Shown here: piece by piece, positions 19,695 through 58,876 of the stretch
Layout of the letters: each line of letters opens with the position of its first letter
How positions within the stretch are numbered: the first letter of the stretch is position 1
DNA from: Sphaerolaimus hirsutus
Lineage: Eukaryota; Nematoda; Chromadorea; Monhysterida; Sphaerolaimidae
DNA length: 64,000 nucleotides
NCBI GenBank assembly: GCA_964036195.1
Contig: OZ038450.1
Span: 31,312,794 to 31,376,793, forward strand
Direction: 5' to 3'
The notes under the pieces: generated by a model
Database searches by the model: none
What the model was told of the DNA's origin: nothing
Seen by the model: only the letters and a program-made list of their open reading frames with translations
Made by a program: the position numbers and the translations under genes

Positions 19695-22600
19695 ATGGCC
19701 GACATTCGGACGGCGGCGCTGAAGCACCAGCGGAAAAGTCACGCGGAACTTTTCGTCGTTTCGGATGAATTCACCCCGGTAAGTTGTTTGGGGTTCCCCG
19801 GATTTGGACCGGGGGTCTCATTTAAATTTCGTTTTTGAATGAGAATGGGGTTTTTTCCTGGAGCGTTTGTTAAAAATGGCGTGAAAATAAATTAAGCTAA
19901 AATAATCGGATATGTAGAAATTTGATGAATAAATTGCTGGAAAAATTAAAGATGTGAATTTCTGTTTTGACACGCAAAATTCAGCAAATAAGATGTTCCC
20001 CTGTGCATAGGGTTTAAACGGGATTGACTTTTCGGGATCGGGATCGGGATTGGTATTTTGACATTTCGGGATTGGGATTGGCCGGGATTGGGGTCACGGG
20101 ATCGGGATGGGGATTGGCATTTTTTCGGGATCGGGCTCTTGGGATAGAGATTTTGGCCAATGTTCTGGCATCCACAGTTAATCATAAAGGTCTCAAAACA
20201 CTGCTGGATGCCAGAAAATTGGCATAAAATGGATGATGGGGGTTTGTGTTCACATTTTCGCATGCAAAAATGTCATTTTTTCACTTTTTTCACGAATTTT
20301 TCCGGGATCGGGATCCCGGACTTTTTAGTTTCTCGGGATCGGGATTTGAAAATTTTCGGGATCGGGATCGGGACTGTAGGGGGGCACGCCATGGCGCTAG
20401 CGCCAGTGCCACACCATTTTTGATTTTGTATCAACTCTAGTTGGTAGAGTTGATACATTTAGGACTTTGCCGCCGCGGTAGCGGCGCGGGGTAATTAATC
20501 AAGGGCGCTGCCGACTCGGAATCGGTAGCGCCGCATGGAAATGTCGCCGCTGTGCGCGCGACAACGACCCCTAGCCGCCGCCGCCGCGACAAAGTCACAC
20601 GACATCATGCCGCTGCGACGGCGACCCAATTTTCACCCGCCGACGCACTACGCGCGTACGCGCCGCCACCCTGAAACTATAGATCTCTGCGGAGATGGCG
20701 CAGCGTGCACGCAGAGTGCGTCGCAAAAATCAAGTTTCAGTGTCGTGAATATGAATGGGGGCATCATGTAAACTACATGGCAAACTGCATTGTAAACACA
20801 TGTTTTGACTTCTTTTAATGGCAGTTCGCATGATGCCACCTAAATTTAATCACCTTGCCGTATCGCGATTTTTTAACTATGTGAATTGCCATCTATTTTG
20901 AAGATACCCCCCCAAGATAATTGTGCATAAAGGGGCATGTGTGCAGTGGAAACACTAATCAGTCTGGCATTCTATTCTAGAATTTCATCAGGTCACAAAG
21001 TGTACACTACCTATTAGATCATGACCCTATGGAGAATGCATGCATTTTTTAGATGCCCTGATTCAGGATTCGGACCCTAGTGGTCTTAGTCCAACTGCTA
21101 CTTTTCTCTACCTATTTACTTAGATGGTTAGTATTTGCACTGCACACACAGGTAATGAGTTAAAAAGGTAAATTTCTGATTCTTATTACTGTTCTTACAA
21201 CCTAGGAATTATTAATGCATGGAAACTTATGTTTTTGCAACCCCTGATACTGTTTTGTAATTCTTCAACTGGCCACCGAAAATACTGCTGTAAAAGCTCT
21301 CTTTAAAAATAAAAAGAAGTCAGTTGAAAACTGGTGGAAAGATTTAATTGGCTTTATTAATACTAGAAAAACGAATTAGAACACTAACTACCTGTCATAA
21401 AGAATCCATCCCTACAAAACGAACCCCGGGTAGCGTTGGCAATCCGCCAGTACCCGGGACCCCCCAAATTTGGCTCCAAATGTACACCCTCGAACCCACG
21501 ACCCTTGGATTAAGAGTCCAATGCTCTACCGACTGAGCTAACCGGGATTAGCTCATTCATTTCTCTATAAAAAATACCCCCAGATCGCCCAGGAAACCCC
21601 CCAAGTGCAGCGACGAAAAACGAGAATGGAAGACGACATCCGAGCGGCCAGCGCACCGCGGACGCAGCGTTAATTACTCCGTTGGGACGCTGGTCAGGTG
21701 CTAAGGTAAAGTGCCAGGCCGACGGCAAACAAGTGGGACGTTTTACTTATTTGCATTTTATTGAGCCGACGCTATATTGGGAGACGCGTTGGGCAGATGG
21801 CTGGTTATGCAAAGAAATGGCGCCAGATGCAGCGCCAGCAAAGTGTACATAAAATAGCATCCTATTCCGACATTGTAAGGAAACTGGCGTTATATTGAGA
21901 GGCGTCGGCGAAGTACAAAGAAAAATGTGACGGATTTCATTCCAAAAATGCCTGAGCATCAACTTTACAAAGCTCTAATGAATGCATGCTTCACGCAGAA
22001 TTCTACCTTCACCCACCATTTGTGTTTCAAAACAAGAACCGTTTTCTTGGTTCTTTATTTAAACAATTTAGGAACCGTTTTTTTGTGGTTCATTATTCAG
22101 ATGGGTTATGGTAGATTTCATTGTGAACATAATGTATATCCACCAAAGAGTATAGATAATTTGAGCGCTCTGCAATTTGGAGTGAAATCCTACACTAGGC
22201 AAGTTGAATGACATCCTAAAATGGTTGCTACATTGAGAGACAACGACATTTTAGAATAAGGCACCATTTTAGCTGCACAGTGGTGAGAATAGTTAGAGCG
22301 CCCGGCGAAACTTAAAGCCATGGACAGGGTTCTATTCCAAAATGCCCGCGCGCCACTTTAAGAATAATTATGTGATTTAAAAAGTGAACTTCCAAGTGAA
22401 CTGCACGCTATGCACGGAAATCTACCTTAATGAACTCTTATTAGTGAGTTTCTCTCAGTGAAAATATCAAGAACCGTTTTTTTGGGTTCATTATTCAGAG
22501 GGGTTATGGTAGATTTCACTGTGAGCAGTTTGTCCACTAGGAGATACGTAAATTCATGAACAATAGCGCCGGAAATATGAATACAAATGCAGGCATTTTA

Positions 22601-25600: not shown

Positions 25601-28600
25601 ACTAAGCTGTCAGCTAAATAAAATGACTGACTTGTTTTTCTCATAAAAAGCTAAGTGTCAAATTTAATAAAAATTAAACGATTTCCGGAAAGATTTGACA
25701 AGAACCAAATGAGCTTGTCAAATAAGTAAATTGACAAGACAGTAAAAATGTCAAGTTGGGAACTATTTATATATCGTTCCCATGCAAAATTCGATTTTGT
25801 AAAACTAGGAAATACCCGTTTTATTCCAACAATTGCGAAATAAAACAACTGATAAGCGCCAGCTAAAATGGCGCTCGAGTTCAGGGCGTAGACTGCGCGG
25901 ACTGCACACACTACTGTATTCTGATGAATAAAGTCACATGGTAAATGTGAAATAAATTTGAAATATTTGGTAATTTTGATGTGACGCGTGCAGTCGCGCT
26001 ACGCCGCCCTGAAATAAACCCCCCCTGAACCATTGGCGCCAGGCGTCAGAGTTGTCAAGAGGCGCCTGAGTTGTTAAATGTGAGACTGTGCTCTGAGCGT
26101 CAATTTCGCTGGTTGTTGGTGCACTTTTGCAGTGAAATAACCACGTCTGAAGCTGTTTATTCAGACGAGATATGGTATATTTCATTGTGAAAGTACCATC
26201 TACTAGCGAAATGACCAGCGACGAAATCTAGTATAAAAAAGGGTGCTTATTCTGAAATTTCGTACACTTTCAAAAAGTTCAATACTTTTAACAACTCTGG
26301 CCGCGGCTCGACGCTGAAAATGCTAAGAAATTTCAGCGTGAAAAATGCATAGGGGAATAAATGTTAGGATAGTTGGGGTGTCTAAACTACGTTACTGTAT
26401 ATCTTTGAATAAGCCCCCCCCCCCCAAGTGTGAAAAGAACACAAATAGATAGTACAAAAGTGGAATGCTTTTTCAGATTAGCATTCCAGAAAAGATATCG
26501 CTCCTGTAAATGAGGTGTTGCACTGGCTGGATGTCAACTGAATTCATGTCAATTGGAAATCATTTCAACATTTGACATTCAGTTGACAGGAGTTTGAGTT
26601 GTCAACTAGCCAGTGGGAACCCCTGCAATGGTTTTGGTCTAGGAGGGGGCGCATTCAAAGATGTATGGTGCCCTGAAAAACAACTGCACCATTGAACAAT
26701 GATGTTATGGCGTCAGGCGCCATGGCATTTAAATGGAATGGCGGCCGCGCGTCAGTGGACGCAGTGGCCGCCCAAATAAATACCCAATCTTGTTCACCAG
26801 TCGCAGGTGCACCGCCGCGCTGCAGCCAATGGCCACCGATGTCTGGCGCCGTCTTTTATCGCTCACGCGTGGACGTCGTCGCGTTGCTAGCCACCTGGAG
26901 CAGCGGGCGTCGGCCCAAAGTCCCGGCGCTCGTTGCCGGAACATGTGGAGCTAGAGTGCCTGCACGACTGGCAAGCGGCACGCGAATCGATCTGCATGCT
27001 GGGACAAATTGAGGCGAACTGGAAAGAGTCAAGTCTGGCCGGTAACAGTGGGACTCGGTAAAAACAACAACAGGGAGTGTTTTATTTGGTTGGGGTCCAA
27101 TTTTGTGAATGTGGATGGGTCCACGAATACAAAATTAGAGCATGTAGGAACTGTAACGGTATCCGGTATGGTACAGAAATGTTCTAGATAAATTTAGGAT
27201 TTTATTTAGAGTAAAATTAGAATTTCTGTAACTGTTTTTCCAAAACTATAACCACAAAACCCAAGAAAACACTCCAAAAACACTTTCACGATGTAATGGG
27301 GGTGTTCCACAAGTGATGGGACACCAAGTAAAATGAGTTTTTTCATAGGCTCTCTAAAAAACGCAAGTTTTATTGGGATCGGGGTCTGTTCTAGAAATAG
27401 CGGGACGCCCTGTGAAACCTAGAAAATAGGAATAGGTCACAATTACATAATTTCGCTCTGCACAATACCCCCTTGAGTACACAGATAACCCCCGGAGGAC
27501 TGCAGAATGAGCCAGAGGCGCCTGATCACCGCTCCAGGTTCTTTCCAGCTGAACAAAGAGCTGTACAGTCAGTCACAGGGGGCAATTTTGGGTTCTTATT
27601 GGGTTCTTGTGTTTCTCTGCTTTTCTGTAACTTGTGTGCCCACTGTGCATTTACTGCTGCTGAATTGCACCTATTGAAGTTATCTACTTATCATTCATTC
27701 ATGCACAATATGGTAAATTCTGTTGTATGCAATTTACAGCTCGCTCTGCAGTATTTCCCTACCTATTATTCTTCAATTTTACCTACTATCCGCTAGGCCA
27801 GATAGGTATATTGTGGTTGTTGTGGGTTGAGTTTGCTGCTCAGTGTGGACTTGGAACTTTCTCTCCGAAAACTACGAAGTGTGGTGTTGTAAGCAGAGTT
27901 AGCCGCTTACTGGGTTCCGAAGTACTGCCCCTGAAGGTGCAAGAAAAGTGCCCTGTAAGACTATTCTGCCCTACAACAAACCCTCTGAGAGCTAGGGCTT
28001 CAAATGGTGCAATTTCACAATTGACTTATGTCACAATTTGCCATTTGCTCAAAGTTACAAGCCACCCCAAAGTCACCATAGGCCAGAAGTTTACTAGCTC
28101 CCACAGGGTCTTTCAATAAACAGAAACAGCTGCTCTTATCGAAAATTGGCTCTAGGGGTTCTAGAGTCAACTATTATGCTAGAGCGGTCGGATGCTAATG
28201 TGTAAGCCGGCATCACAGCTGGGCCAGCACTGCTCAGCCATGGCGGCGCCTCCCTTGACTGCGGGAGAGCCAAGGTGCTGCCTATTGTTCAGAGCTCCAG
28301 ACTAGCCCCAGAGTCTGAAACCAGTCTGCATCATTGAGTTTATGGTTCTACATGGTACGTGTGCCGACACCCGACCGGTCCTGCTTCCCCCCGTCTCAAA
28401 TTTAGTTGCAAGTTGAGAACGCGGCGTTCTCTGATGCACAGCATAGGCACACGCGCTCTGAGAACCTAGCCCCGCTAGCCATTAGACCGTCCTCAATTGA
28501 TGTACCCTGCCCCGCAATTAGTGCGCTTGTCTGGACTGGCAGTCAGACATTAGGGCGAGCCTCAACAACTCAATCAACTGCCTTGTTGCTCCAATGCATC

Positions 28601-31600
28601 TTGGGGAGAGTGCAAAGGAAAAACCAAATTCATTTTATTTTGCTTTGTTCTTTCTCATGAGTATTACTTTATTATTGTATTCTTATTATGTATTATCTTG
28701 TATTATCTTATTGATACCTATTTAGACACCATTGTTTTGTTTCAGTTCAGGTGCGCTTCTTGAAGTTCACCAAAACCCTATTCTATCTCAAACAATCAAT
28801 TATCCACTGTCCACTTGGGTGAAGTTTACTTAATAGCTCAACTAACATTAACAGTAGACCACGCTTCTTGAAGTTTGGTCGACCCCTATTCTATCTCAAA
28901 GAACCATATCTGTTAATGCACTTAGCACAAACCACTAAAAAGCACCTGAGTTAGCATAAAGAATGACAAAGTAATTCCTGAGAGACGGGCAGAGCTGAGG
29001 TGAGAATGGAAGTTGGAGTTAGGGTTGGCCGATGTTTTTTTTTAAACGTTTTTTTTTAAAAAAAAAACGTTTTTTTTTAAAAAAAAACATGACGTCCGAA
29101 ATGTTTTTTTTTAAAAAAAAACATCGGCCGAAATTTTTAGTACTAAGCACTAGGTATTTTGCAAAATTTTTGCGCGCAAGCGCGCAATTTCACACACAAA
29201 TTGACATTGGTGGTTGTTTTCATTGGTTTTGTTGCATTTTTAGTATCAAAACATCCATTTCTATGTGCTACCATGGGTGAATAAGCCGACATATGTTGCT
29301 GTAATATATAATATTGAGGTAATGTGCTTCCATGTACCTCCACAGTGTGTAACTTCACTCCCAAAGTAACAACCTCCTTTTATAACCTTGTTTGATCACC
29401 ATTCCGTGCCAAACTTTACCTGAAGTCACGAACATTCGACTATAAGGCGATATACGAACGATATGTCGACAAAAAATGGATATTTTTGACACAAATCACC
29501 ACTTATAATGCTATCCCATGGCTCCACAGCCATTATATGGTCATATTTAACATCACAGAGTATTGCCAGTGTCTGATATACCTATATATGTTGACACTAG
29601 GTCATATCTGGGAGCTTTTAAAAAAAAACGTTTTTTTTTAAAAAAAAACGTTTTTTTTTAAAAAAAAACGTTTTTTTAAAAAAAAAAACATCGAGTTAAA
29701 AAAAAACGTTTTTTTTCCAACCCTAGTTGGAGTAAATATAAATATATTTTATATATATTTATGAATTTATTTATTATTTTAATGAATGACAGGTATAAAC
29801 TTGTATGTTTATACATGACAATTATGTCATAAACTTTCATAGCTATGAATAGCCAACTTACTTTCCCAAACAATGACTTAGCAATTAATTTTGGTTTATC
29901 CAGAGCAGGAACCCTTTTGACATAACTTATAGCTAACTTACTTAAGCATGCCTACATGCACAATCCATGCTAACATGTGAAATATGCTTAACCGGCTATG
30001 AAATTCAATAGCAATAAAATTATTGGAGCCTGTTATGTGAACACCCATGTGTTCCCTATACATATATGTATGCTAATGTAGCTACGGGCTTAGCTGGTTA
30101 AGCTCACTTAACAAGTTAACGCCCAAACACCCCGAACAAAATTCTGAAAACCCTCAAAGACTCTGATGTATGACAACAATGTTAAATGACACGTGATGTT
30201 ATTCGAACATTCTTATGTCATATGGGAATATATGCATAAATGCATAGATCTGTTAGCTCACCAATTTCAGAAATATATCAAAGTATAGTATCATTGTATG
30301 AGGAGTTATATGGATAAACACTGGCATGTGATATGCACACATATGTTATGTGGACATGTATGTTCCTTAAACATGAGACTTATGTTTGAACATATGTAAA
30401 CCTGAACCAGGTACATATATGTAGGGATACATATTGGCTATTGTAGTTTGTTTGTCAACCACAGCTATTATGTCAAACAAACTATTTAAAAAATATCCTA
30501 CTCGCGCGTATACACACATATACATATGTCAGCATATGCATATGGGCTTATACACGTACAATTTTATGAACTTCCATTCTAACTTCAACTCTGCTTAATG
30601 CGAAGTAACCACACGTGCACACCACACTCCGCTACTACCACCCGACGACAAACACGATCACGCCGATCATAAAGCCCACGGCTGGCTGCAAGGTGGAGCC
30701 ATGATTGCACAGGTTCCCCGTACAGTGGCAGCGGTGCTGGTGCACGCCCGACTCCCAGGAACGTGTCTGACAGGACTCGGAAGCCAGAGGAGCCCCGTAG
30801 CCACAGCGCTTCTCAACGGACACGGCAGCTACGAAAAGTCAAGTTGTTCGCTCAAAACGACTTTGCTTAGTCAGTACTTATGTTAGGGAACCAGATAAAC
30901 TAACTTCCGAGGGCAGTTTCCGTCTTGACACAGTAGTGTCCTGAACACACGCCACACGGCAAGTGGTCTGGGCTCTGGCGCCAAGCCGGAATGACAGCAC
31001 AGTCATAGCACTCGGTGGCTGAAGTGATAATGTAAAATTGTCATTTCTGACACCTCAAGTTGTCTACTCTCAACTCACTGGAACCTAGTCCTCCCGGCAA
31101 GTACCCGTACAAGCCGATAAGCAACGCCAGACACAGGAAAACTGACACCGCTCCGAATAGCAGCATGCTATAGGACCCCGAGAAGCAGCATGTCCACCAG
31201 CAACGCCGCGCCGCGGTCGTCGAACCACCGCCCTACTGCGGCGAAACCGGCCGAAGTCAGTAGGCACGCCCGGAATTTCCCTCAATAAAGCCATCGCTGT
31301 CGAATAGCTGGTAGCGCTGATAGTATTTAGTAGAATGAATGAGACCTGCGCAATGGCAGTTTTATTTAGTCATTCAATAATGAATAAAAAAAAATGAAAA
31401 AGGCCAGAATGCGAGGTAATTCAGTGAGATGGGCACTGGTCACCCCGCCAAATCACCACATAGGGACCACCCAGAATGCGAGGCAGCCACGGCCTGGCGG
31501 CCAAGCGCTGCAACTCCCCCCTCGTACCATGACAACGCAAAGCGTCGTCCAACTGTCGCACCTCGCACAACGCACCAATGACCTGGTGCGTGCCGCCGAG

Positions 31601-34600
31601 TGACCGCACGCCGCACGACGACAGCTAAAAACGGGAAACGGTTCAGTCTAGGGGTGGCGCATTAAGCTGATTGCCTTCTAAAGGAGACACTAACAACCTC
31701 TCATGTGTCCCAAAAGTACCAATACCACTCAACCTTATTAATTCCCAAAAAACTTTTAGCAAAGTTGTGAAAAACATCCAGATGTGAAAATCATGGATGC
31801 TTTTCACAACCCTCTCTTCAAAAATAAGGAAATATTCGACTTTTAATTTTGTTTTGAACACGTTCTCTCTAAGCAACTTGAGGAAAAACCATTGGAACAA
31901 ATAATAGTTCAAGATTTCACAAAATACTTTTTCATATTTTTTGACTAATCAAGAAAAAAAATCGAAAACTGACCAAGACTAAAATGCTAATAGCCCACAT
32001 TTTAGCTGGGTGATTCTAGCCAATTTTATCTAGAAAATCTGCAGTGGAAAGTAGCCAATAGAGTAAGCTCAAAAACTCTGTCTCAAGAAATAAGAAATGC
32101 TCAACTAAAAGTCACTCAATTCTGTAGCCAAAAGCTCAAAAATATGTGACTAGCACTTAGGGTTCAAACGGGATTGACTTTTCGGGATCGGGATCGGGAT
32201 CGGGATTCACTTTTTGAGATTTAGGGATCGGGATCGGGATCGGGATTGGGGTTTCGGGATCGGGATCGGGATCGGGATTGTTTTTTTGAGATTTCGGGAT
32301 CGGGATCGGGATCGGGATTGGCCGGGATTGGGGTCACGGGATCGGGATCGGGATTGGGATAGGCATTTTTCCGGGATCGGGATTGGGTTCTAGGGATAGA
32401 TATTTTGGCCATTTTTCTGGCATTCACAGTTGTTCATAAAGGTCTCAAAACACTGTTGGATGCCAGAAAAGTGGCATAAAATTGACGCTGGGGGTTTGCA
32501 TCCAGCTTTTTGCATGCAAAAACGTCATTATTTCACTTTTGATAATTTCCACTAATTTTTCCGGGATCGGGATCCCGGACTTGGGAGTTTCTCGGGATCG
32601 GGATCGGGATTTGAAAACTTTCGGGATCGGGATCGGGATCGGGATTGGTATTTTTGAGATTTCGGGATCGGGATCGGGATCGGGATTGGGGTTTCGGGAT
32701 CGGGATCGGGATCGGGACTGGTAAATCCCGGAATTTCACGGGATCCGGGATCGGGATCGGGATCCCGTTTGAACCCTACTAGCACTGTCTTATCATATTT
32801 CAGCCAAGATAACTAGCACAGCTCTGTTGATTACAAGATACCAAAATGCCAGATGTGGCATTTTGGCTCAGACCCAGCTAACTAGAAAGTAAACAACAAC
32901 TGGGGGGCCGATAAATTATGTCTGTCGGAACGCGCGCGTTAAAATACGCACGTTCCAGGGACCTACCACTAGTAAAAAGTAAATTTAATAGGCAAAATTT
33001 TCAACTTTTGAACGGATTATCGCATGAAGACGTATGAGCACTCATTTTGTTCGCGCTGACGAGGCGAGTTCAGATCTGTGCCTCATGTCTTCATACGATG
33101 CTTCGTTGGCAAATAAGAAATAATTTCGTAAATTTTGGGTACATAAAAAAATTTATTTATGACAAAACCTGTGGTATTTAAGCACTTTTGGGCTACATGG
33201 AGGGTGTTCCCATGCAATGCCCTGCTAGCCTTGTTGATTTGTCTGCCAATCATTTATACCCCCCCTACTTTTCTTATCCTCACTATACTATTACGAATTA
33301 ACAATTTCCATTTATTTTATTTTATTTAAACGATTTATTTTATTACTTCTAACGCAAATACTAAGCTCAGATTACAAAAAATTATAATAATAATAAATGA
33401 TTTTGGGAAAATACCAGTAACATACCCCACCAGAACAGTTTTCCAATTAAATTATTCTTTCCACCAAAAAAAAAACTCCACTACTCAATATGTAAAATGC
33501 CCACCGGTCATACACAAATTTTTTTAACATAATATTTTCAATCCACACAAACTTTGCGCTTCTGTTGTTCTGAGACACTCCTGGAACACGGGGCCCATGT
33601 TCACTCTGGGCGGGGGGACGGGAGGCCAGGCAAGTGGATATGTGTGGATAAGTATCCATGATCTCACAGTTTTACCCGACTTTTGCGCAAATTTCCCTGT
33701 TATTCACTAGTAGCATTAGCATCTTGCTAGCCCTATCTTTTCTTTCCCAATCTAGAATTTTGTATTTTACATTTTTTTATGCCAAACACATCAACCGATT
33801 GTATTTTCGCAACCCAGGATACTACTAAAACTATAAAACTACCCGAAACATTTACTCAATCTGATTTAATCAAACTCACTATCGAATACGCACCACACCC
33901 ACGCGAGGGCCTGAACGTCTTCCACAATGTCGAACGACGACAATTCGCGTATGTCACGGCGTCGTATGCGCTGTCGATACAATGTGTCGTGTGGACCTCC
34001 CCATCATTTGTATTCCTGTAATTTACATGCTACAAGTTACCTTTCAATTTCTATTCAGTAGTTTTATTTTGACCAAATATCGACAAATTTAGACACCAAT
34101 GGCTCTGGCAGCACTTGCAGCACCAAACAAAAGCCGAACCCAACCTACCAGGGCCATGACAAAAGACAGCTTCACCGGCTGTCCTGTTCCAGTTGACAAA
34201 ATGTAAACGTGTGCAACACCTGCGGTGAAAGTAATAACGTTAACGCTAACCCAGTCACCAGAGCCTGGCTCTTGTGATGAACACTCTTTTCCCTGCAGAA
34301 ATTGCTTTCTACCACACACCCATTTTATCTCAGCGCATACCTCGTTTACAAACTGCATTTTTTCTCACCGATCAACTGCACAAATAACTCTACCTTTCAG
34401 TCTGGCCACCTGCCAAACGCCCAAAAATGTGTACAGGGTCAGTCAAACTTGACCTAGTACTGGACATGCTAGCAGAATTAGAATGGAGACAGAGACCAGA
34501 CATAGATTTGGGACCCAGCCAGATCAGAAATGAGAATGTACCAGCCCAGAGAATGGTCAGCCACATCACCGAGGTGGTTGGTCCGTCGCGCGCTGGACCG

Positions 34601-37600
34601 CCAGGCACAGTGCGCGGAGAGCTGGTTATAGCCGGACTGGAAATCAATCCCAGGAACCGCGCCAAGCACCCGGCTCCCCGGGGCAGTTACAAACGACAGA
34701 TGGCACTGATCCCGTGGAGTGATCCAACCAGAGACGGAGTCCTGCATGCCCGTGGAATCATGTATGATGGCAAAATTGACAAGGGCTTGCATCTTTCGCA
34801 CGATACACTGAGCCCGGCCAAAATACGAGACGTGCTGACCCGGATACCCTGGGAAGCATTGCACGGAACAGAGGCCAGCGTCCACAGCGATCAGGGAACT
34901 TGGGTGCGACTGCACCTGCACACCCCTGCGACGCTGCTATGCCAAGCACAGGATGCTGTGCCCAAATTCCATCTCGCCATTGGCCACTACACCACGTGCT
35001 TGGGATGGAGAGGCTGTGAGGTGACTATGCTGACCACGATCACTGGGAGAATGGAAAAGGGCAAAATAGTGCCAGATGTCCTAGTGATGCAAGAGCTTCA
35101 CACTCTGGGACAAGCGCATTACGAGCAGAATGAGGTGGAAATGCGGCGGATGACTCAGGAATTCTGGATCGGTGACAAGATCATGCCACCAGCCGTGGTG
35201 GAGAGCCTACAACATGACCACCCACTTTTATGGGTCTCGGGCATCAGGGTCGGCGGACGCCACGTCCGGCCAATTTTGAAGAACATCCGATGCGTCAAGA
35301 AACTGGCTGACCTGGCACCGCACAGCCCGGTCAGCAGCACAGATCCAGTGCCGCTGTTCCAAAATCTGTTCATTCTCTTTAAGGTACCAAAAGCAGTCAG
35401 AGTTCAAGGGCTGGACAGACAAGAATTGAGCACCGAGGAAGGGTTTGCGGATCTGACGCGGTTGGCATTCGCCCCGGATGCCCATGCGGCAAACGCGCCC
35501 GCTTACACGTCAGTGGAAAAGAAAGAAATCTTGCTGGAGTATCAGTATTGGCGAGCCTACCATTTTGCAAAGAACATTCGCACCAAACCAGAAGCGGAGC
35601 AATTGGCCATTTACGAAGCAATGGTTGATCTCTGCTTTGACCACTCGGTGGCCAAACTAGTCAGCGCAATGTGCTGCACCAGAAAACAGAGGGCTCCATG
35701 GACTAGTGACTTCACAATCACTAGGGCCAATGACTACAGCTATATCACATTCATGGTCACGCTTCTTCGAGACCAGAAAACCACATGGACCAACCGCACG
35801 CCGGTCAGGGTACTCTTTGATGGGCCAAAGTTGGACTTAGCGGGACAAATCTCATCTGTCAGGCCGATCAAACAAGGTACCCAGCAGCAAATCGGCATCT
35901 CAGTAATGTCAAAAGGAGGGCTCCAGTACCTAGAATGCCACACTAAGCTGGGACGCAGCAAAATAGCGTTCATGGCGTGCGAGCAAGACACAGACGACAA
36001 AGATAAGCGGACATGGATCAAGCACGCTTCAGCGATCATGAACCCCAGTAAATCAGCAGCTGAGTTGGAAGTGCTGAGACTGCACCTGCCCAACCAGTCA
36101 AAACTGGCAGCGCACGTCAAAACAGTGACAAGTGATCAGAGAGTATACAAGTATCCCGAAGGGTTCCCTGAGAATGCAAATGAAAAGCAGCGGTCGGGCT
36201 TGAGTAAACTAAGAACCAATAACGTACGTCTCACTGTCCAAGCCGGGGCGGGATGTGGGAAAAGTGCATTCTCCATCTGGGGAATGGATGACCATCTGGA
36301 ATCGGATTGGGAACGTCACGATTCTGAACCACTGGCCACAAAAGTTCTCTTCGTGGCGGGAGATAATGGCGCCACAGACCGACTCCGCGAAGAAGTCAAC
36401 CACCGAATTGAATTTGGTGGCCCAACGCGAAAACCTTGGAGTCACTATCAAATGAGAGCAACTTCAAGAAGTGTCGAGCAAAACGAAAGACTCCGAAACC
36501 GACAGACGGACCGAGGGTGCCATTTGGGCCGAGCCGATCCAGTTCCGCTGGAATGGCTAGAAAACGTCAAAAGTCGCTTGGAGGAAAAAGAAGCCTGGAC
36601 AGCACGAGAAGATAGAGAAATTAGCCAGAACCACCAGGTGACTGTCCCAGACTGTGCGGAGAACACCGGAGTGTGACAGAATTCAGACAAGTATCTATCG
36701 TAACCTTATAAGCCTCTTATTGAACTTGACTTCTCGCACGGTTTTGCCACCTTCCGGTGTGCTAGGCATGGTCTGGGACTGCCCCAGATTGTAACCGCCA
36801 CGATTTCCACTGCTCTGTCGAGATTGTCTGAGAGCAGGTTCAGCATGCTGATTGTCGATGAAGCAACCAAAACGTCTTAAAATCACAATCGTTAAAAAAG
36901 TATTTGCATTTACTCAAAGCTACGTATTCCCATACTTAATGTGTTGTTTCTCACCAAGAACTCAATACTTTACATTTACTCCAAAAATGTTTTAACGATT
37001 CTGGTCCAAACTCGAACTCGGCGAGCTGCTGTGCCTCATGGATGAAAGCGATGGCATTCGGCGCCGCTGCGTCGTTCTGCTGCTAGGTGATTCCCGTCAA
37101 CTGGCCAAACCCATTCTTTCACAAACACCGATCAGACGGGCAGTGGAGGCAGTCAACAATGAAAGCGCCCTTGAGAGAATGTGCGCGGTCTCCACCGCGG
37201 ACGAGAGGCTCCGCCTGAATCAGATCTACCGCGCTTCCGCCGACCACACTCGGCTCGTGAGCAGCTTGATCTACACAGGGGAACACCTAGTAGCTGCACC
37301 AACGCCAAACACTCTAGAAGATTACGCAAGAGTGACGCCACCGGGGTTCCCGCTGCCATACAGATGCCAGCCAGATGGAACCAAACGCTATGCACCAGCC
37401 ATCTATTGGGTCGACGTTGAGACAAAGCGGGCCGCAGACGGGGATGAGAGAGACCAATCACTGCGCCACTGTCAACAGACACGCGACCAATTCAAGCAAT
37501 TCATATTCCATTGGTTCCAGGCCGCCGGTGGCAGTGCTTTCGAGAAACTAAGAGTCCCACCAAAGTTGTTAAAATGTGTTTACTTTTACTCAAAAGTGTC

Positions 37601-40600
37601 ATATGTACAAATACCAACTAATATTTATTTATTCACGTACTTCCCGGCATACAAAAACAGTCTCAACATGCTTACAATCTAAAAATGACAAAACATGTCC
37701 AGCGATTTGTGATTTAAGTTTGAAAATCTTTCAGAAAATCAAAGCAAGACTTGCTGAAAATGAATCTTGCCTCGACCTTTCCGACCAGAAAAAAAAAAAA
37801 AAAAAAAACCAGGGGCAAGCATGTTTTCTGTATGGAGGGACAGTATAACACAAATACTTTATGCTCATGTACGTCAGTTAGTACTGCTCCTTTTAACAAC
37901 CCCGGTTCTCACGTACTACAAAGACTTTGTCAGGGATTTCGAGCAAGATGTCGCCATGCTGGCGCGCGAGTGGGGCAGACAGGGCATGCTGAATCTGACG
38001 GACCACATCTCGACGTGCGACATAGCGCAAGGGTCACAGACGGAGGATGTGCTGTTGGTTCCTGGCTGGAATCTCAACACCAGATACCAGCAGCTTGCCC
38101 ATCTCACGAACATGCTCCGCCTGTGCGTGGCCCTCACCCGGCAGAAAAGGTCCATCATCATAATGACTGACTTCGAACCGATCTTCAAGCTTTCCGAAAC
38201 CACCACCCACTGGCGGCAACTCTTCAAGACGATCTGCACGACAGGCGCATGCATCATGCGGGCTCATCGCGCAGAACGGGCCCGCGACCTGTTGGAGCTC
38301 GGCGACACGCCGTGCGTAGTAGCCAGTGACCCGAGAGAGTTTTTCGGCAAAAGTGGCTGTGAGGTCAAGTTATGGAAAGTTTGAAAAGTCAATTGCGGCC
38401 TTCGCAAGGGAATTGACTTTTCATACTGCACGTTTAATAAAAAATAAAATAACATAAAAAATATAAAATTTAGAAAATACAAAAAATACCCGACGAAGTT
38501 TAGGAGTATGTCGCCTGAGTACGGATTATCTCACTGAGGGTTGGGATGGTATGTCCATAAGCAAACCAGAAACCAGATTTCAAGTGCTATGTAGCCTCAG
38601 AATTGAATTTTGAGCCCAACAGTCACCACAGTCCAGGTCTCAGAGGACATATCAAACCAACCCTACTGCCTTGATTTTCATCGTTCCATGTTTATTTCGC
38701 AGTGCTTGTCTTTCAAACCGATTTTAGTACCAAAAGTACCCGGAAATATGTATGATGTAAAACTTCCGAAGGCAAAATCCAGCTCAATAGACAGGATCCG
38801 CTGGTTGAAGCTACAAGTGACACACAATAGAACCCATAAGTCTGTCTGAGGTTGGATTCCGCATACGGCTGTATCAAAGTTTTTTTGCAATGTGTACGCG
38901 TACTCTGTAATTTGCAATGTATCCGTCATAAGCATAAATTTCATCCCTGTTCTGAATTGAAACATGTTGAGATTATCCACAATAGTGTAAGATAATTTAG
39001 AAAACACATTGTATTTATGATCATTCTAAAATCCACATCTTATGCAATTGCCAAACATCCCATTGTATAAATACCAATCACACGCGTAGAAAGAGTGGGC
39101 AAACAACTCTTTCAGAAATGGTCCACCAAAAATAGATTACTTTCCCTGAACCCTTTCTACATGTGAAAATACACAGGACATTGTTGTTGCTATTATACCG
39201 TTATACCACCACTTGAGCATAAGATTCTGTGATAGCGCTATTGACCGTCCCGCAACCGTTACCTTTGCTACTCAATGCGACGTCAACAACCACTGGAGAA
39301 ACATCAACAACGTCACCTGCGTATCCGTCAAGACACCGGCTGGAGAATGCGGACGCACCATAGACTACGACTACCATGCGGCTGACAGCGGTTCGAAGCT
39401 AACTGATAGCTGTGGCAACGCACACGCGGTACTCGACACCACAGCGGCCGATACGTGCAGCATTTCAACGTTGCATGACTATCACTTGTGCAATAGCTCG
39501 ATGCGCAGTTCGACAGATTGCGATACAACACCAAGGGGCTGCTGTGATCAGCATTGAATCGAGCAACTGCCGTTACCCAGAAAGACTGAGTCCACGACCC
39601 GACCAACAGCTGCTACACAATTCTAACGCTAGCGCTGAGAACCAGCCGACATTCATCAAGCACTGAGAGGTCAAGGACTGCAGACAGCATCTTACCAACA
39701 GTCACCGCAGCAGAACACGCCATCGCACCACTGACCAATTCCAGAAGCGGCTGCTCAAGAAAATCGCAGTACCAACACGCTAACCAGACGCACCACGCGC
39801 ACCGACGGTGGTTCAACCGCATTCACCCCATGATTCCCGTGGGACACGCTGCTCAATGGCACCATATACAAGACCACGTTTCTCTATGGTTCGAGCATTG
39901 ACACGACGGCCGCCTTCACTGTGGATGATACATTGGCTTGTTTGCATTTGTATAAGATTGTAAATACCAAGTAATTATAATTTTGTGGATAATCTCAAAC
40001 ATTGTTTTAGCACCCGTGGACAATTGATCGTTTATTTGAATAACATAATCATCGCGCAGATGTGAACTGAACATGACTCTGATACTCTTACTTGTTGAGA
40101 GGGTGTGAAAACTTGAAAAATGCTAAAATCTTCTACGAACAGAAAATCAAAAATGTAATATACCCGGGATAATTAAGTTAGGAATGTGCTCACTTCCGCA
40201 AAGTTTACACACCCTATTCCAATTATCGTTTGATTTGATTAAGGCTTGTGCGAGGTCGCTACAATGTCTAGGAGTTGGCGCATGTAGGGGGGCACGCCAT
40301 GGCGCTAGCGCCAGTGCCACACCATTTTTGATTTTGTATCAACTCTAGTTGGTAGAGTTGATACATTTAGGACTTTGCCGCCGCGGTAGCGGCGCGGGGT
40401 AATTAATCAAGGGCGCTGCCGACTCGGAATCGGTAGCGCCGCATGGAAATGTCGCCGCTGTGCGCGCGACAACGACCCCTAGCCGCCGCCGCCGCGACAA
40501 AGTCACACGACATCATGCCGCTGCGACGGCGACCCAATTTTCACCCGCCGACGCACTACGCGCGTACGCGCCGCCACCCTGAAACTATAGATCTCTGCGG

Positions 40601-43556
40601 AGATGGCGCAGCGTGCACGCAGAGTGCGTCGCAAAAATCAAGTTTCAGTGTCGTGAATATGAATGGGGGCATCATGTAAACTACATGGCAAACTGCATTG
40701 TAAACACATGTTTTGACTTCTTTTAATGGCAGTTCGCATGATGCCACCTAAATTTAATCACCTTGCCGTATCGCGATTTTTTAACTATGTGAATTGCCAT
40801 CTATTTTGAAGATACCCCCCCAAGATAATTGTGCATAAAGGGGCATGTGTGCAGTGGAAACACTAATCAGTCTGGCATTCTATTCTAGAATTTCATCAGG
40901 TCACAAAGTGTACACTACCTATTAGATCATGACCCTATGGAGAATGCATGCATTTTTTAGATACCCTGATTCAGGATTCGGACCCTAGTGGTCTTAGTCC
41001 AACTGCTACTTTTCTCTACCTATTTACTTAGATGGTTAGTATTTGCACTGCACACACAGGTAATGAGTTAAAAAGGTAAATTTCTGATTCTTATTACTGT
41101 TCTTACAACCTAGGAATTATTAATGCATGGAAACTTATGTTTTTGCAACCCCTGATACTGTTTTGTAATTCTTCAACTGGCCACCGAAAATACTGCTGTA
41201 AAAGCTCTCTTTAAAAATAAAAAGAAGTCAGTTGAAAACTGGTGGAAAGATTTAATTGGCTTTATTAATACTAGAAAAACGAATTAGAACACTAACTACC
41301 TGTCATAAAGAATCCATCCCTACAAAACGAACCCCGGGTAGCGTTGGCAATCCGCCAGTACCCGGGACCCCCCAAAGGGACTGCTAAATCCCGGAATTTC
41401 ACGGGATCCGGGATCGGGATCCCGTTTGAACCCTACCTGTGCATACAAATACGGTGCATCTGAAGCTTGAATCCGCTTTTAGATCGATGCATCCGAAGCT
41501 TACCAACTTATGGACGTGGAAATGTCGCGCAGCTCCGTCAAGAATCTCAAACTTTGTGCCGCCGCTGCCAAGGACAGAAATCAAGGCAAATTGACTTTTT
41601 GCATTTTTGTTTTTCGTCTTTGCTGTACTGTGCCCTGCGCAAAGTTGGCAAGGTGCCAAACCACAAAAATCGCGTGAATACTATTCGCCAGCACTAGGGG
41701 CCTGTCTCCCAATTTTGCCAGAACTTACCTGAAAAAGAAGACTCCTAAATGACAAAATTGACAATTTTTCACTGGATTTTGAATGAATGAATTCTGACAA
41801 ATTTTGCAGAACATTTTACAGGGTTTAACGATAGCCCCTGGAGAAGTTAGATAGTTGAATCCATACGAATCACTAGCCCCTACTTACAGACATGCAATCA
41901 AAAGTAGACGCCCTAAAATCAGCCACAAAATTGGATGAAAAGAGTACAGCTGAGAAAAATTCAGCCACTCAAAAATGTCTAACAGAAATTGACTCTGAAC
42001 ACACTAGAATGGGACTGGTGGAGATGGAAAGTTTGTCTTTGGATGATAAAATCCATGAAATTTCCGGAAAAGTTGACCATGCCGTGAAGGAGATAACGGA
42101 ATTGCGCGGAAAATTGAGGGAAGATGAATTGTATCAGTTTGTTTTGTTATTTGTTTTTTTTGTTGGTTTTGTGTTGGTTCAGTTAAAACCGTTGTCGAGA
42201 ATTAACTTTAATTTACTCGAGGATCCTTCTACGCCAGTGGATGCATTTCCCAGATTTGCCATTTGAGTTTACCAATGTGCCCAAAATCGCTAATTTTCAT
42301 ACCGTTTAATAGATTTTCATTTTGAAAATCACTAGTTCATGTGTTTTTTTGCCTATTTTCAGCTGCTTTGTGTACTATATGCGCTTATATGCCTATTTTA
42401 TCCTAATTTTAGCGATTTTTCTCCCTTTTCTTCGTTCTATACCTTGACCCGAACCCCCGCAACCCCTCCCCCAACTTAGCCCCCCATTTTTTCAGCTATC
42501 TATCTCTGAGGTGCGATTTGCTATCCATGCAACCCCCCCCCCGAGGGTCATAATCTAGGAGACCCCAATAACTATTTACCCTTAAAATTTTGCAATGAAT
42601 ATTTACCCATTTCGATTTCTCCATGGCGCAGGTTGAAAAAAGAGCTCATCTTGCGAATGATCGGTGGCTATTTTGTGGATGCACAGGGTTCTAATAAACA
42701 TGTGGGTTCGATTTTTTGGAAAATACCTACGATACTGGTCAAGGACGTATCCAGGGGGGGGGGGCTGCAGCCCCCCCCCTTCCCGGGGTGAGACCTAAAA
42801 AGTAACGGAAAATGCAACTTTTCCTATATATTTTTTCGATGTTTCTTAAAAATTTTGCGCGCAAGCGCGCAATTTCTTCCCCATGCAGTGTATTTTCAGT
42901 GGATCGGCCCCTTTAAACCAAAATACTTGGAAATGAACACATTTTTGCGAATTTCGCTGCATATGTATGCATATTTCCATACATAAATATAAAGCGGTTG
43001 TTGGCGCTGGCGCCAACGCCAATAGCGCCATGGTGTGGCGCCTTTGTATGGCGCTAGAGCCAAAACGCTTTTCCGCCCTTATATAGGGAAAAATTTTAGG
43101 GGGGGGGGGGCTGAGCCCCCCCCCGTTCGCCGGCCCCCGTTAACAAGCAGCCCCCCCCCCGCTCAAAAATTTTGGATACGTCCCTGATACTGGTCGTGTA
43201 AAATGTCAAAATAGGTTTATTTTGTCTAGTGCTCCTTTGATTTTTTTCATGACATTTTAAATGAATTGTGACGTTTTGCAGGACATTTTACATTTCGTAT
43301 TTTGCGATTTGCATATCCCAAACCCCCCTACATCATTCACACCCCCATTCAGAACCCGTCTCAACCAATGGACGTTTCCATGTCCGACAGCATGATGCAA
43401 TACGACGCCGAACACGAACTGCAGCGCGAACTGATTCTAGCCCATGGAACCAGATTAGAAAGTGTGTGGCGCACTGGACAGCCTTCGAAGGGGGTTGCGA
43501 GCAAAATTTGGCAGTTTTTGGCAGATTGCCATGGTTTTGATCGGATGGATGGATGA
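19695..43556 (+). CDS. Coiled-coil protein, 247 residues; intron 1 holds a 21-kb LTR element
   Basis: I do not recognise the family. Five exons: 19695-19778 (MADIRTAALKHQRKS...), 41483-41585, 41890-42136, 42632-42737 and 43353-43556. Phases agree throughout and the sum is 744 nt. Exon 1 ends at a strong donor (CG|GTAAGT) and exon 2 begins after CCGCTTTTAG; nothing else in the 21.7 kb between continues the frame. Exon 2 ends in a GC donor (AG|GCAAAT). Residues about 60-150 are heptad-like and charged (SKVDALKSATKLDEKS, ISGKVDHAVKEITELRGKL), then LKKELILRMIGGYFV and a polar C-terminus (MDVSMSDSMMQYDAEHEL). No signal peptide or membrane segment: the hydrophobic frame after 42136 is intron. A nuclear or cytoskeletal coiled-coil role is only a guess. 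A hAT-like MITE has duplicated the donor of exon 4. Confidence 0.68.
20375..21468 (+). repeat. Left LTR (1,094 bp)
   Basis: Direct repeat of 40283-41376; by eye the only difference is G at 21055 versus A at 40963. It starts TG but ends AAA rather than CA. Features: a perfect 12-bp stem with 5-nt loop at 20428-20456 (GTATCAACTCTA / TAGAGTTGATAC), a GC-rich block with GCCGCCGCC steps to about 20720, and an AAAATAAAAAG A-rich stretch near 21305 that could serve in polyadenylation. Confidence 0.92.
20428..20456. repeat. Perfect stem-loop near the LTR 5' end
   Basis: GTATCAACTCTA, loop GTTGG, TAGAGTTGATAC: 12 paired bases. It is repeated exactly in the right LTR at 40336-40364. Confidence 0.85.
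21471..21547 (-). other. Antisense tRNA-Lys(CTT) copy at the primer-binding-site position
   Basis: Read on the minus strand this is a full-length tRNA-Lys: acceptor 5' strand TCCCGGT, D arm TAGCTCAGTCGGTAGAGCA, anticodon arm TTGGACTCTTAATCCAA with anticodon CTT (21512-21514), variable GGGTC, T arm start GTGGGTTCGA and a 3' CCA. The 3' strand of the T and acceptor stems has changed: the acceptor pairs only 6 of 7 with wobbles and the T stem is weak, so it is probably not a working tRNA gene. On the plus strand it begins TGG two bases after the LTR, where a retroelement primer-binding site lies; ordinary sites copy only about 18 nt. Confidence 0.75.
22034..23546. repeat. Six AAGAACC...GGTTCTT hairpins
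   Basis: Copies at about 22034-22055, 22072-22091, 22469-22489, 22758-22779, 23265-23286 and 23525-23546. Each has a 5-7 bp stem around a T-rich loop (GTTTTCTT or similar). Several are followed at a near-constant distance by ATTCAG or TTCATS and then GGGTTATGGTAGATTT. Confidence 0.75.
23001..23186. repeat. CTAGTTGACA-family MITE
   Basis: Ends GACCCACACACGCTGGATGTCAAC-like and GTTGACATCGC... ACTAGCGTGTATGGGTC are inverted repeats; the flanks extend with AGATAGACCC / GGGTCTAGG. Confidence 0.68.
23616..23852. repeat. MITE shared with 51783-52020 (inverted)
   Basis: Both copies run from a CACCCTGCACG-type end through TGCCAA...CATGYGCGAGTTTCAT, a TTATAATGTTA core and CATTGGCACGCTTCCAACA to GTACGCCGAGTATACCT. 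The two are in opposite orientation. One is inside the LTR element and one outside it. Confidence 0.7.
26521..26617. repeat. CTAGTTGACA-family MITE, short
   Basis: Ends CACTGGCTGGATGTCAACTG and GTTGTCAACTAGCCAGTG are inverted repeats, about 100 bp in all. Confidence 0.68.
26691..29019 (+). other. Coding-like fragments of unknown nature in the LTR element
   Basis: Base composition becomes balanced here and several short open stretches look translated. 26890-27058 reads …LPEHVELECLHDWQAARES… and stops at a possible donor (CG|GTAAAA). 27508-27580 reads MSQRRLITAPGSFQLNKELY. 27820-28119 gives SVLRLL-type sequence ending SSHRVFQ-stop. I could not join them, and I recognise no gag, capsid, protease or polymerase motif. 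They could be remnants of the element's own lost genes or of captured host genes. Confidence 0.3.
29020..29724. mobile_element. TAGGGTTGG-ended AAAACG element nested in the LTR element
   Basis: Ends TAGGGTTGGCCGATG and CCAACCCTA, with identical 8-bp flanks GTTGGAGT (29012-29019 and 29725-29732). The body contains paired A/T runs around ACG near both ends and a central unique part with TTTGCGCGCAAGCGCGCAA. Confidence 0.9.
29733..30634. other. AT-rich stretch without a gene
   Basis: Rich in ATATG/CATAT steps (ACATATGTATG, CATATGTATA) and short palindromes such as CATATATGTA. No open frame or known repeat recognised. Confidence 0.5.
30635..31166 (-). CDS. Ly6/uPAR-type GPI-anchored surface protein carried by the LTR element
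   Basis: Three exons in phase: 31085-31166 (signal peptide MLLFGAVSVFLCLALLIGLY), 30905-31018 and 30635-30828; 390 nt, 129 residues. The mature part has the three-finger cysteine pattern: ECYDCA, then CGVCSGHYCVK, then RCGYG, a C in LASESCQT, and the closing CHCTGNLCN, in which the last cysteine is followed by Asn as in all Ly6 domains. It ends with a hydrophobic stretch (AVGFMIGVIVFVVGW), expected for a GPI signal or a membrane anchor. Both introns are clean GT-AG. The gene is antisense to the LTR orientation, so its introns would survive reverse transcription of a genomic-length transcript. No ligand can be inferred. It looks intact. Confidence 0.82.
31421..31624 (-). CDS. Terminal coding exon of an unknown gene inside the LTR element
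   Basis: Opens after TTTTTAG and runs 67 codons to TGA. It reads GTHQVIGALCEVRQLDDALR then LAARPWLPRILGGPYVVIW. The composition and the good acceptor suggest a real last exon on the minus strand. Upstream exons (above 31625) were not identified; the 89-codon frame at 31643-31912 is AT-rich and does not join. It lies 255 bp upstream of the Ly6-type gene, in the same orientation. Confidence 0.35.
   Translation of the reverse strand: MSSCGVRSLGGTHQVIGALCEVRQLDDALRCHGTRGELQRLAARPWLPRILGGPYVVIWRGDQCPSH
31625..33778. other. Interior spacer with nested TAGGGTTC element
   Basis: Holds the element at 32158-32778. A minus-strand frame at 33447-33659 (LASRPPAQSEHGPRVPG) could be an exon but has no partner. 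The rest is AT-rich; 33160-33440 shows nothing. Confidence 0.4.
32158..32778. mobile_element. TAGGGTTC-ended GGGATC element nested in the LTR element
   Basis: Ends TAGGGTTCAAACGGGATTG and ATCCCGTTTGAACCCTA, flanked by identical octamers CTAGCACT (32150-32157 and 32779-32786). Confidence 0.93.
33779..38384 (+). CDS. Superfamily-1 RNA helicase (UPF1/MOV10-type) carried by the LTR element
   Basis: Exons: 33779-33983 (MPNTSTDCIF...), 34401-36637, 36713 to about 36873, about 37026-37564 and 37882-38384; the first two introns join in phase, the last two junctions are not resolved. About 1,200 residues. Motifs: Walker A AGAGCGKSA (36242-36268), motif Ib/Ic-like PQIVTATIS, Walker B MLIVDEATK (36848-36871), motif III GDSRQLAKP (37086-37112), IV-type QIYRASADHTRLVSSLIY, V STCDIAQGSQTED, VI RLCVALTRQKRSIII. 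These are the residues expected for ATP binding, hydrolysis and the arginine finger. The ~600 residues before Walker A match nothing I know. UPF1-type helicases act in RNA decay, silencing and retroelement control. Same strand as the LTRs. If the unresolved junctions are real breaks (an in-frame TAA at 36878), it is a recent pseudogene. Confidence 0.72.
38385..40282 (+). other. 3' interior of the LTR element, degraded coding-like sequence
   Basis: 39213-39557 is a 114-codon open stretch rich in Cys (TCVSVKTPAGECGRT … DYHLCNSSM), faintly like a Ly6 tail but without a hydrophobic end. 39843-39972 reads LNGTIYKTTFLYGSSID … LHLYKIVNTK and stop, which looks like a last exon. 38678-39007 on the minus strand is a 109-codon frame (FRTGMKFMLMTDTLQITEY). 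None could be joined into a gene. No polypurine tract precedes the right LTR. Confidence 0.3.
40283..41376 (+). repeat. Right LTR (1,094 bp)
   Basis: Copy of 20375-21468 with one substitution seen (A at 40963). It is followed by GGGAC, the second half of the target duplication, and then the right part of the interrupted TAGGGTT element. Confidence 0.92.
42265..42575. repeat. Remnant of the CAGGGRTCTCC family
   Basis: In the coiled-coil gene's third intron. It contains CAGCTATCTATC, the TAGCGATTTTTCTCCC block and the end TCTAGGAGACCCC, but no matching left end. Confidence 0.55.
42740..43186. mobile_element. hAT-like MITE inserted at a splice donor
   Basis: Left end CAAGGACGTATCCAGG, right end TTGGATACGTCCCTG, with a perfect 8-bp duplication ATACTGGT (42732-42739 and 43187-43194). 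The duplicated octamer spans the exon 4 donor (ATACTG|GT) of the coiled-coil gene, so both copies keep a GT. Confidence 0.93.
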
Positions 43557-58400: not shown

Positions 58401-58876
58401 CTGTGATTTTGGGGGAGTTTTGGCCTCTTGCCAATTTTTGGGTTTAATTGTGTGGCTGCATACTGATTTGCATGTGCAAATGTGGGAACTGGGGAATACT
58501 GTATTAGCATTTGGGTGGATTAATCGAGTTCTTCCCGCACATCAGGGGGCAGTCCCAGACCCCGTAAAGTGCCGTGCTACATGTCAAATGTCGTGCAAAG
58601 TGTCAAAAGTCATGGAAAATGCCCGATAAAATGGCAAACGTTTGCCATTTTACCGGGCATTTTCCATGACTTTTGACACTTTGCATGACATTTTACAGGG
58701 TATGGGACTGGCACAAGCGCCAAGCACCAGTGGCACCAAAGAAAAATAGCGTCGAGCGCCAGGGCGCTTTTTGATTTGACGCTATTGCCAGGCGCTTTTG
58801 TTCCAGGCCCATGGACAAATAGCGCCAAGCGCCACTGCGCTTTTTGAACCCTTAAGTTGAACACTTGAATTTTCAG
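58401..58876. other. Spacer with a complete introner unit
   Basis: 58547-58714 is a near-perfect palindrome of family 1 (CAGTCCCAGACCCCGTAAAG … TTTTACAGGGTATGGGACTG). 58720-58850 has AGCGCCAAGCGCCA steps. No exon of the MMP gene was recognised here. Confidence 0.6.

What the first reader, a model, noticed from the sequence alone, without database searches (positions are those of the whole stretch)
20375..41376. A very young 21-kb LTR-flanked element with no visible gag-pol but with cargo genes
The two 1,094-bp LTRs differ at one site by eye, and a 5-bp duplication (GGGAC) frames the unit. The interior lacks any RT, integrase, protease or gag signature that I can find, yet carries a Ly6-type gene and a UPF1-type helicase gene. 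Known large non-autonomous LTR elements (LARDs) are usually non-coding, and giant LTR elements keep gag-pol. This would be a gene-carrying LTR element moved in trans, or a new element class.
Basis: partly seen in the sequence, partly recalled or inferred. Interest (0 to 1): 0.92.

Follow-up and report, generated by a model that had tools for sequence, protein, structure and literature searches.

The report
Gutted giant retroelement keeps selected helicase
This 21-kb stretch of what is likely animal DNA is a recently inserted, stripped-down member of a family of giant retrovirus-like elements: it has lost the genes for its own movement but keeps a predicted helicase gene whose protein sequence selection has preserved across the three stripped copies compared, so it likely moves with proteins borrowed from fuller relatives.

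Summary
The LTR pair holds: 20375-21468 and 40283-41376 differ at 1 of 1,094 sites, GGGAC frames the unit, and a related repeat at 807-1239 shows the empty site. The cargo reading fails. Fuller relatives in the same genome (18.9-29.5 kb) carry gag, the same UPF1-like helicase, an env-like ORF and Ty3-type protease-RT-integrase between related LTRs. The window element is an internal-deletion derivative: gag and nearly all of env-pol are gone, and the helicase blocks are open. Copies C16 and (in the part read) C3 share the deletions. Among the three, helicase dN/dS is 0.09-0.19 (p 1e-8, 5e-12, 4e-10), so selection kept it after gag-pol loss. Other, shorter derivatives keep gag and lack helicase and pol, also under constraint. 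The primer-binding site lies in a whole antisense tRNA-Lys(CTT) with encoded CCA, hence copied from mature tRNA. Gag-only partners are known in wheat; for a helicase-only partner or a whole-tRNA site my searches listed no paper. Trans mobilisation is inferred; the leader looks recombinant. New variant of a known kind.

The parts
20370..20374 (.). left target-site duplication GGGAC
20375..21468 (+). 5' LTR (TGTAGGGGGG...CCCCCCAAA)
   Evidence: 99.9% to 40283-41376; 41 matches in the genome, full and partial
21471..21488 (+). primer-binding site, 18 nt; 5 of 18 positions differ from the tRNA-Lys end, ungapped, by eye
21471..21547 (-). whole tRNA-Lys(CTT) complement including CCA
   Evidence: Rfam RF00005 E 4.4e-4, ARAGORN, 92% to C9a's 76-nt tRNA
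21548..33670 (+). long leader region, shared in large part with full-length relative C9a and with gag-only copies; no Pfam match passing on its own
   Evidence: minus strand to 31421
28060..28360 (+). conserved leader element (87-98% in seven copies); no consistent codon periodicity, no significant RNA fold
29020..29724 (.). nested repeat absent here from the six copies compared (C16, C7, C1b, C6a, C14a, C9a); related to 1993-2645
32158..32777 (.). nested GGGATC-type repeat, absent from C16 and C9b
34146..34223 (+). junction where gag is missing relative to C9a, C6b and C9b
34388..36640 (+). UPF1-like helicase, first coding block (Walker A, by eye); codon constraint from about 34502, true start unknown
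36641..36779 (+). first intervening sequence, with 38-nt inverted arms 76% complementary
36780..36869 (+). helicase, second block (DEAT, motif II read by eye)
36870..37007 (+). second intervening sequence with inverted-repeat ends
37008..37565 (+). helicase, third block
37566..37934 (+). third intervening sequence with inverted-repeat ends (by eye)
37935..38381 (+). helicase, last block (AAA_12)
   Evidence: 28% and 44% identity in two pieces
39833..39968 (+). tail of the pol ORF (20 + 24 residues); the rest of env-pol is missing between here and the env remnant
40283..41376 (+). 3' LTR
41377..41381 (.). right target-site duplication GGGAC
807..1239 (+). paralogous repeat showing the empty target site

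Best explanation
The unit is a young internal-deletion derivative of a giant Ty3/gypsy-type LTR element with an env-like ORF; it keeps LTRs, a tRNA-derived primer site, a 12-kb leader and a predicted helicase gene under purifying selection, and it likely replicates as RNA with Gag and Pol supplied in trans by fuller relatives. Shown: LTR pair, target duplication and empty site; relatives with gag, helicase, env-like ORF, protease, RT and integrase between related LTRs; sister copies with the same deletions; helicase codon constraint within the gag/pol-less group. Inferred: reverse transcription is primed by a tRNA at the TGG two bases past the 5' LTR; Pol and Gag come from relatives of the C9a type or from an unseen partner; the helicase would help the copy that encodes it (for example by unwinding or protecting its very long RNA), or else the whole set of elements. 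A second group of derivatives keeps gag and has lost helicase and pol, so the family looks like partial elements around a full one.
For: LTRs, TSD, empty site. 5-bp TSDs read in 7 of 7 copies with an interior whose two ends I examined (window and six others), three of them (C7, C6a, C6b) after shifting an LTR end by 1-3 bases; C9a and C9b ends were cut and not examined. Relatives: in C6b Retrotrans_gag, aspartic protease, RVT_1, RNase H and rve; nearest solved structure Ty3 Gag-Pol, E 3.3e-79. C9a is 29.5 kb and contains leader, gag, helicase and a 2,355-aa env-like/pol ORF. Sisters: C16 has both deletion junctions (97% over window 32.8-41.4 kb); C3 was read from window 34187 to 39787. Selection: window-C16 20 synonymous to 6 nonsynonymous (dN/dS 0.089), window-C3 40:22 (0.16), C16-C3 37:24 (0.19), 928 codons, no stops, p 1e-8, 5e-12, 4e-10. 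With the last block added, window-C16 gives 22:9, 0.12, 1,076 codons. tRNA complement with encoded CCA: C9a 100% over 76 nt, while 10 other loci, taken as nuclear tRNA-Lys genes, match 100% over nt 1-73 only.
Against: No expression or movement was observed. No pol-bearing copy with a window-type LTR was found; the three pol-bearing copies fetched have LTRs only 72-74% identical to the window's, so the helper is open. The left part of C3 and the surroundings of the C4:17.81 Mb LTR were not read. The leader looks recombinant: at 21619-22068 the window is closer to C9a (0.88-0.89) than to C16 (0.65-0.78), and through much of 22.2-24.5 kb closer to C1b or C14a than to C16 (local alignments in a repeat-rich stretch), so the lineage is not strictly clonal. 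The PBS matches neither tRNA-Lys fully nor any tRNA gene that I found. The purine tract before the 3' LTR is interrupted (by eye). Pfam finds no helicase in the two C6b blocks scanned; the name rests on AAA_11/AAA_12 in the window and motifs by eye. The last helicase block alone gives 2:3. The env remnant shows no significant constraint (p 0.069).
Confidence: 0.78

Rival explanations
1. Plain deletion derivative: gag-pol was lost recently and the helicase is merely not yet decayed; it has no role.
For: LTRs are nearly identical; deletion derivatives are common among LTR elements (general knowledge); the last helicase block is 2:3.
Against: Window, C16 and C3 share the deletion as far as read, differ at 3-6% of synonymous sites and still show 20:6, 40:22 and 37:24 synonymous to nonsynonymous changes, while the env remnant in the same copies is frame-broken.
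Confidence: 0.1
2. The constraint was acquired in full-length masters, and the gag-pol-less copies picked the helicase block up again by template switching.
For: The window's leader looks recombinant; recombination among retroelement lineages is known (PMC11302176, passages).
Against: Helicase dS between this group and the pol-bearing group is about 1, so no recent exchange with those; among the nine LTRs at 92% or more I found no full-length copy, though the C4 LTR and the left part of C3 were not read.
Confidence: 0.09
3. One reading: host genes captured as cargo between two LTRs (LARD-like transduction or new class).
For: Large interior without gag-pol matches in Pfam.
Against: The same helicase sits between gag and env-pol in three fuller relatives.
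Confidence: 0.02

Closest known systems
RLG_Cereba/RLG_Quinta and RLG_Sabrina in wheat (PMC11302176; abstract and passages seen)
   Same: Autonomous element plus a non-autonomous partner that has lost RT and integrase but keeps gag; the gag-only 15-kb copies here are of that kind.
   Different: In the window class the kept gene is a helicase and gag is gone too; the window copy is 21 kb and the genome is likely an animal's.
Burro giant gypsy elements of planarians (PMC6431247; passages seen)
   Same: Giant, gypsy-like, env-like region in frame between gag and pol.
   Different: Burro has BIR, BCL2-like, MATH and ankyrin motifs in a very long ORF1; here a UPF1-like helicase, a long leader, a whole-tRNA primer site and partial derivatives.
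SF1 RNA helicases in insect retrotransposons (PMC6338049, PMC5563155; passages seen)
   Same: A superfamily-1 helicase carried by a retroelement.
   Different: Those are virus-derived helicases, fused to LINE proteins and, in Diptera and Hymenoptera, to LTR-retrotransposon proteins; here AAA_11/AAA_12 (UPF1-like) between gag and env-pol of a Ty3-type element.
LARD (Kalendar 2004, only as described in PMC6431247)
   Same: DNA between two LTRs in place of much of the coding sequence, moved in trans.
   Different: Described there as not necessarily coding and rarely over 10 kb; this one is 21 kb and keeps a gene under purifying selection.

Membership tests
Ty3/gypsy LTR retroelement (family level) | RT-RNaseH-integrase order with Ty3-like RT | tested here: met
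   In relative C6b: RVT_1, RNase H, then H2C2 and rve; best PDB match Ty3 Gag-Pol
Ty3/gypsy LTR retroelement (family level) | window element itself encodes gag and pol | tested here: not met
Ty3/gypsy LTR retroelement (family level) | LTRs, tRNA primer site, short target duplication | tested here: met
Ty3/gypsy LTR retroelement (family level) | polypurine tract before 3' LTR | tested here: inconclusive
   AGGAGTTGG in window, AGGAAGGGG in C6b, by eye
Semi-autonomous partner (Quinta/Sabrina type) | keeps an intact trans-acting gene but lacks RT and integrase | tested here: met
   helicase blocks open, no RT or integrase core; that the helicase acts in trans is not tested
Semi-autonomous partner (Quinta/Sabrina type) | primer site and LTR ends identical to those of an autonomous partner | tested here: not met
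   Window PBS differs from C9a's; LTR ends TGTAGGGGGG/CCCAAA vs TGTAGAGGGC/CCTAAA in C6b. The tRNA beside one C3 LTR is of C9a's type
LARD | interior not under coding selection | tested here: not met
   helicase under purifying selection
Burro | BIR, ankyrin, BCL2-like domains | tested here: not met
   none in the eight C6b ORFs scanned with Pfam; not every frame was scanned
Env-bearing retroelement | signal peptide, Cys-rich ectodomain, membrane anchor | tested here: inconclusive
   seen by eye in L022:859-2778; Pfam gave only weak lines (BDV_G E 0.028, DUF6629 E 0.034), no protein match

The most novel reading that the evidence does not exclude
A multipartite retroelement: one family split into full elements, gag-only elements and helicase-only elements, each partial class retaining its one gene under purifying selection, so that complementary partial genomes mobilise one another like the segments of a multipartite virus.
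Probability: 0.35. Interest if true: 0.85.

Novelty: new variant of a known kind. Interest (0 to 1): 0.72.

Why it matters
Non-autonomous LTR elements are usually treated as parasites of autonomous ones. Here one genome, likely an animal's, holds gag-only and helicase-only derivatives of one giant family, both with measurable constraint on the gene they kept. That makes it testable whether partial retroelements cooperate, and which retroelement proteins act preferentially on the RNA that encodes them. The whole mature tRNA written into the primer site, with the last 18 bases differing between copies, would be a natural record of how far reverse transcriptase copies its primer.

Tried and rejected
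Ly6 cargo gene: rejected, no Pfam match to Ly6 for 39150-39554, overlaps homology to the env-like ORF. LARD: rejected, see membership test. C13 pair as an element: rejected, both LTRs have the same flanks and an ACACA duplication, i.e. one duplicated solo LTR. Finding the second primer tRNA by its 15-base end: 13 genome matches, 6 at LTR copies; six of the other seven were fetched, ARAGORN calls no tRNA there and the context shows none by eye, but ARAGORN also missed the tRNA-like stretch in two element copies of that type, so the test is weak; C16:6081428 was not opened. A second pattern for that tRNA did not complete. Structured RNA in the conserved leader element: z-score -0.83, 36 of 200 shuffles as good, not claimed. 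Structure prediction of the 762-aa helicase block: mean pLDDT 34, not used. Helicase relatives: none at E 0.001 (7,991 candidates scored), none in PDB for the 762-aa block alone or as a four-copy profile, weak lines only for the other blocks (Sen1 E 0.15; unrelated; IGHMBP2 family E 0.011), none confirmed in viral contigs. Pol in viral contigs: none. Env-like ORF: none (7,994 candidates scored). Genome counts of helicase and gag by protein search did not complete, so copy numbers rest on the LTR and leader searches, which score only the best candidates.

Full report
Observation. The two LTRs (20375-21468, 40283-41376) are 1,094 bp and differ at one site; GGGAC flanks the unit, and the joined flanks align at 87% to a related repeat at 807-1239 that has one GGGAC and no insertion. 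The window lies on contig C1 of a 348-Mb assembly of 762 contigs.

Family. The LTR has 41 matches in the assembly, some partial (40 candidates scored). I fetched both ends and the interior of C7:1.20, C16:9.97, C1:23.61 (C1b), C6:0.75 (C6a), C14:4.06 (C14a) and C6:28.85 Mb (C6b), C9:18.74 (C9b) and C9:25.80 Mb (C9a) with one end slightly cut, and parts of C3, C620, C15:24.49, C14:24.92 (C14b) and five other loci. C13:10.54 Mb, also fetched, is a duplicated solo LTR and was dropped. Of C4:17.81 Mb only the LTR and its near flanks were held. C393, C4:10.58, C4:24.44, C15:24.78, C1:29.76 and the smaller hits were not opened.

Fuller relatives. C6b holds a gag ORF (Retrotrans_gag, E 2.8e-8), helicase blocks recognised by homology to the window's (Pfam itself is silent on the two scanned), an env-like ORF, two stretches matching aspartic protease, and RT-RNaseH-integrase. 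Its RT is nearest Ty3 among solved structures and 30-40% identical to the 120 proteins listed of 2,218 found, most of them unnamed. C9a spans 29.5 kb and also carries the long leader, a 562-aa gag ORF and a 2,355-aa env-like/pol ORF. C9b resembles C6b. Not all their genes are open: gag is interrupted in C6b and altered at its end in C9b, and the helicase of C9a has one stop. Whether any is active is unknown.

What the window element lacks and keeps. Family proteins searched against it give the helicase in three open pieces (76-80% identity), env pieces at 28% and 44% identity, a 20+24-aa tail of the pol ORF, and no gag, protease or RT. C16 has both junctions; C3 was read from window 34187, inside the gag junction, to 39787. 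So one gag-pol-less group, here called H, has at least three copies. In an LTR tree window, C3 and C16 fall with the C13 and C4 LTRs, far from the pol-bearing copies.

Selection. Between window and C9a, substitutions concentrate at third codon positions through about 34500-36650 and 37014-37526; the one indel there (27 bases) keeps frame, while frame-breaking indels fall in the intervening sequences and before 34500, so the gene's true start is unknown. Within H the counts are 20:6, 40:22 and 37:24 synonymous to nonsynonymous in 928 codons (p). The last block alone is 2:3 for window-C16. Pol-bearing copies give 0.06-0.17 among themselves and 0.11-0.13 against H. The helicase is thus about as constrained without gag-pol as with it.

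Against simple descent. In the leader the identity of window to C16 is uneven, from about 0.65 to 1.00 per 150 bases, and in places the window is closer to C9a or to C1b and C14a, which suggests recombination between lineages.

Gag-only derivatives. C1b, C6a and C14a keep an open 531-aa gag from its first Met and, by tblastn, no helicase, protease or RT. C7 keeps gag, part of env and a longer pol tail. C15 and C14b have open gag, C620 a broken one (gag dN/dS of C620 against C7, C15 and C14b 0.50-0.69 over 126 codons); of C15 and C14b only the gag region was fetched. Gag dN/dS is 0.18-0.26 among C7, C15 and C14b and 0.24-0.37 among C1b, C6a and C14a; five of these six pairs were tested, p 1e-3 to 1e-7. 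The two sets retain different amounts of env and pol, which suggests separate deletions.

Primer site. A tRNA-Lys(CTT) complement starts two bases after the 5' LTR. In C9a it matches 100% over nt 1-76, CCA included (it is the query), while 10 other loci match 100% over nt 1-73 only; four of these were looked at and have no CCA. Nine loci, C9a included, match to the CCA end over 74-76 nt and three more over nt 27-76. Five loci outside the LTR family list were read: each has the tRNA complement, in four 73-76 nt and in one 50 nt, and weak similarity to the window's LTR or leader. Encoded CCA means that the sequence was copied from mature tRNA. In window, C16, C1b, C14a and C6b nt 1-59 stay as in tRNA-Lys (97-100%; window and C16 by eye in the alignment) while the last 18 nt differ, in two variants, with one extra base. 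In retroviruses plus-strand synthesis stops after 18 nt at m1A58, and an unmodified tRNA is copied to its end (PMC13191261, passages). The simplest account is an old read-through copy plus later exchange of the 18-nt site; the second primer was not found. C7, C6a and C620 share only the D-arm part.

Leader. Window 27950-29019 is found at 12 loci, all at members of this LTR family, plus a 52-base piece at three others, one of them (C388) a related element (15 candidates scored). Identity there is high even where LTRs are 72% identical, with no consistent codon periodicity. RNA folding is not better than shuffles.

Mechanism. Shown: past insertion of the whole unit, family relationship, gene loss, helicase constraint. 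Inferred: tRNA-primed replication with Gag and Pol in trans, and a benefit of the helicase to its own RNA or to the whole set; the data do not separate these two.

Literature. Gag-only partners are described in wheat (PMC11302176, abstract and passages). Env between gag and pol is described in Burro (PMC6431247, passages). Virus-derived SF1 helicases in retrotransposons are described (PMC6338049, PMC5563155, passages). Searches listed, among the top rows that I saw (titles and starts of abstracts), no paper on a helicase-only partner or a whole-tRNA primer site; subscription journals are mostly not held.

Noticed in passing
window 36641-36779, 36870-37007 and 37566-37934: The sequences that split the helicase have inverted-repeat ends (the last two GTTAAAA...TTTTAAC) and, by eye, the last two seem to sit between 3-base direct repeats with no clear AG acceptor; a similar GTTAAAA end lies at 48756. 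Possible transposon-derived introns.
   Followed up: partly
L049, L050, L051, L052, L053: Other loci (C388:0.51, C2:8.31, C1:28.02, C16:2.02, C7:17.33 Mb) also carry a tRNA-Lys complement with CCA just after a possible LTR end, so the trait is wider than this LTR family.
   Followed up: partly
L022:2484-4031: Two separate stretches match retroviral-type aspartic protease, one after the other.
   Followed up: no
L003, L004 (C3:22.3-27.7 kb): Two window-type LTRs in opposite orientation about 3 kb apart, sister to each other in the LTR tree: an inversion in one element or an assembly error.
   Followed up: no
window 21619-24500: The leader of the window copy is in places closer to gag-only or full-length copies than to its helicase sister C16.
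   Followed up: partly
window 56555-58714: Array of repeats, mostly 88-96% identical.
   Followed up: no
window 8140-8715 (+) and 56082-56522 (-): Exon-like ORFs matching Elongator complex protein 2 and matrix metalloprotease.
   Followed up: yes
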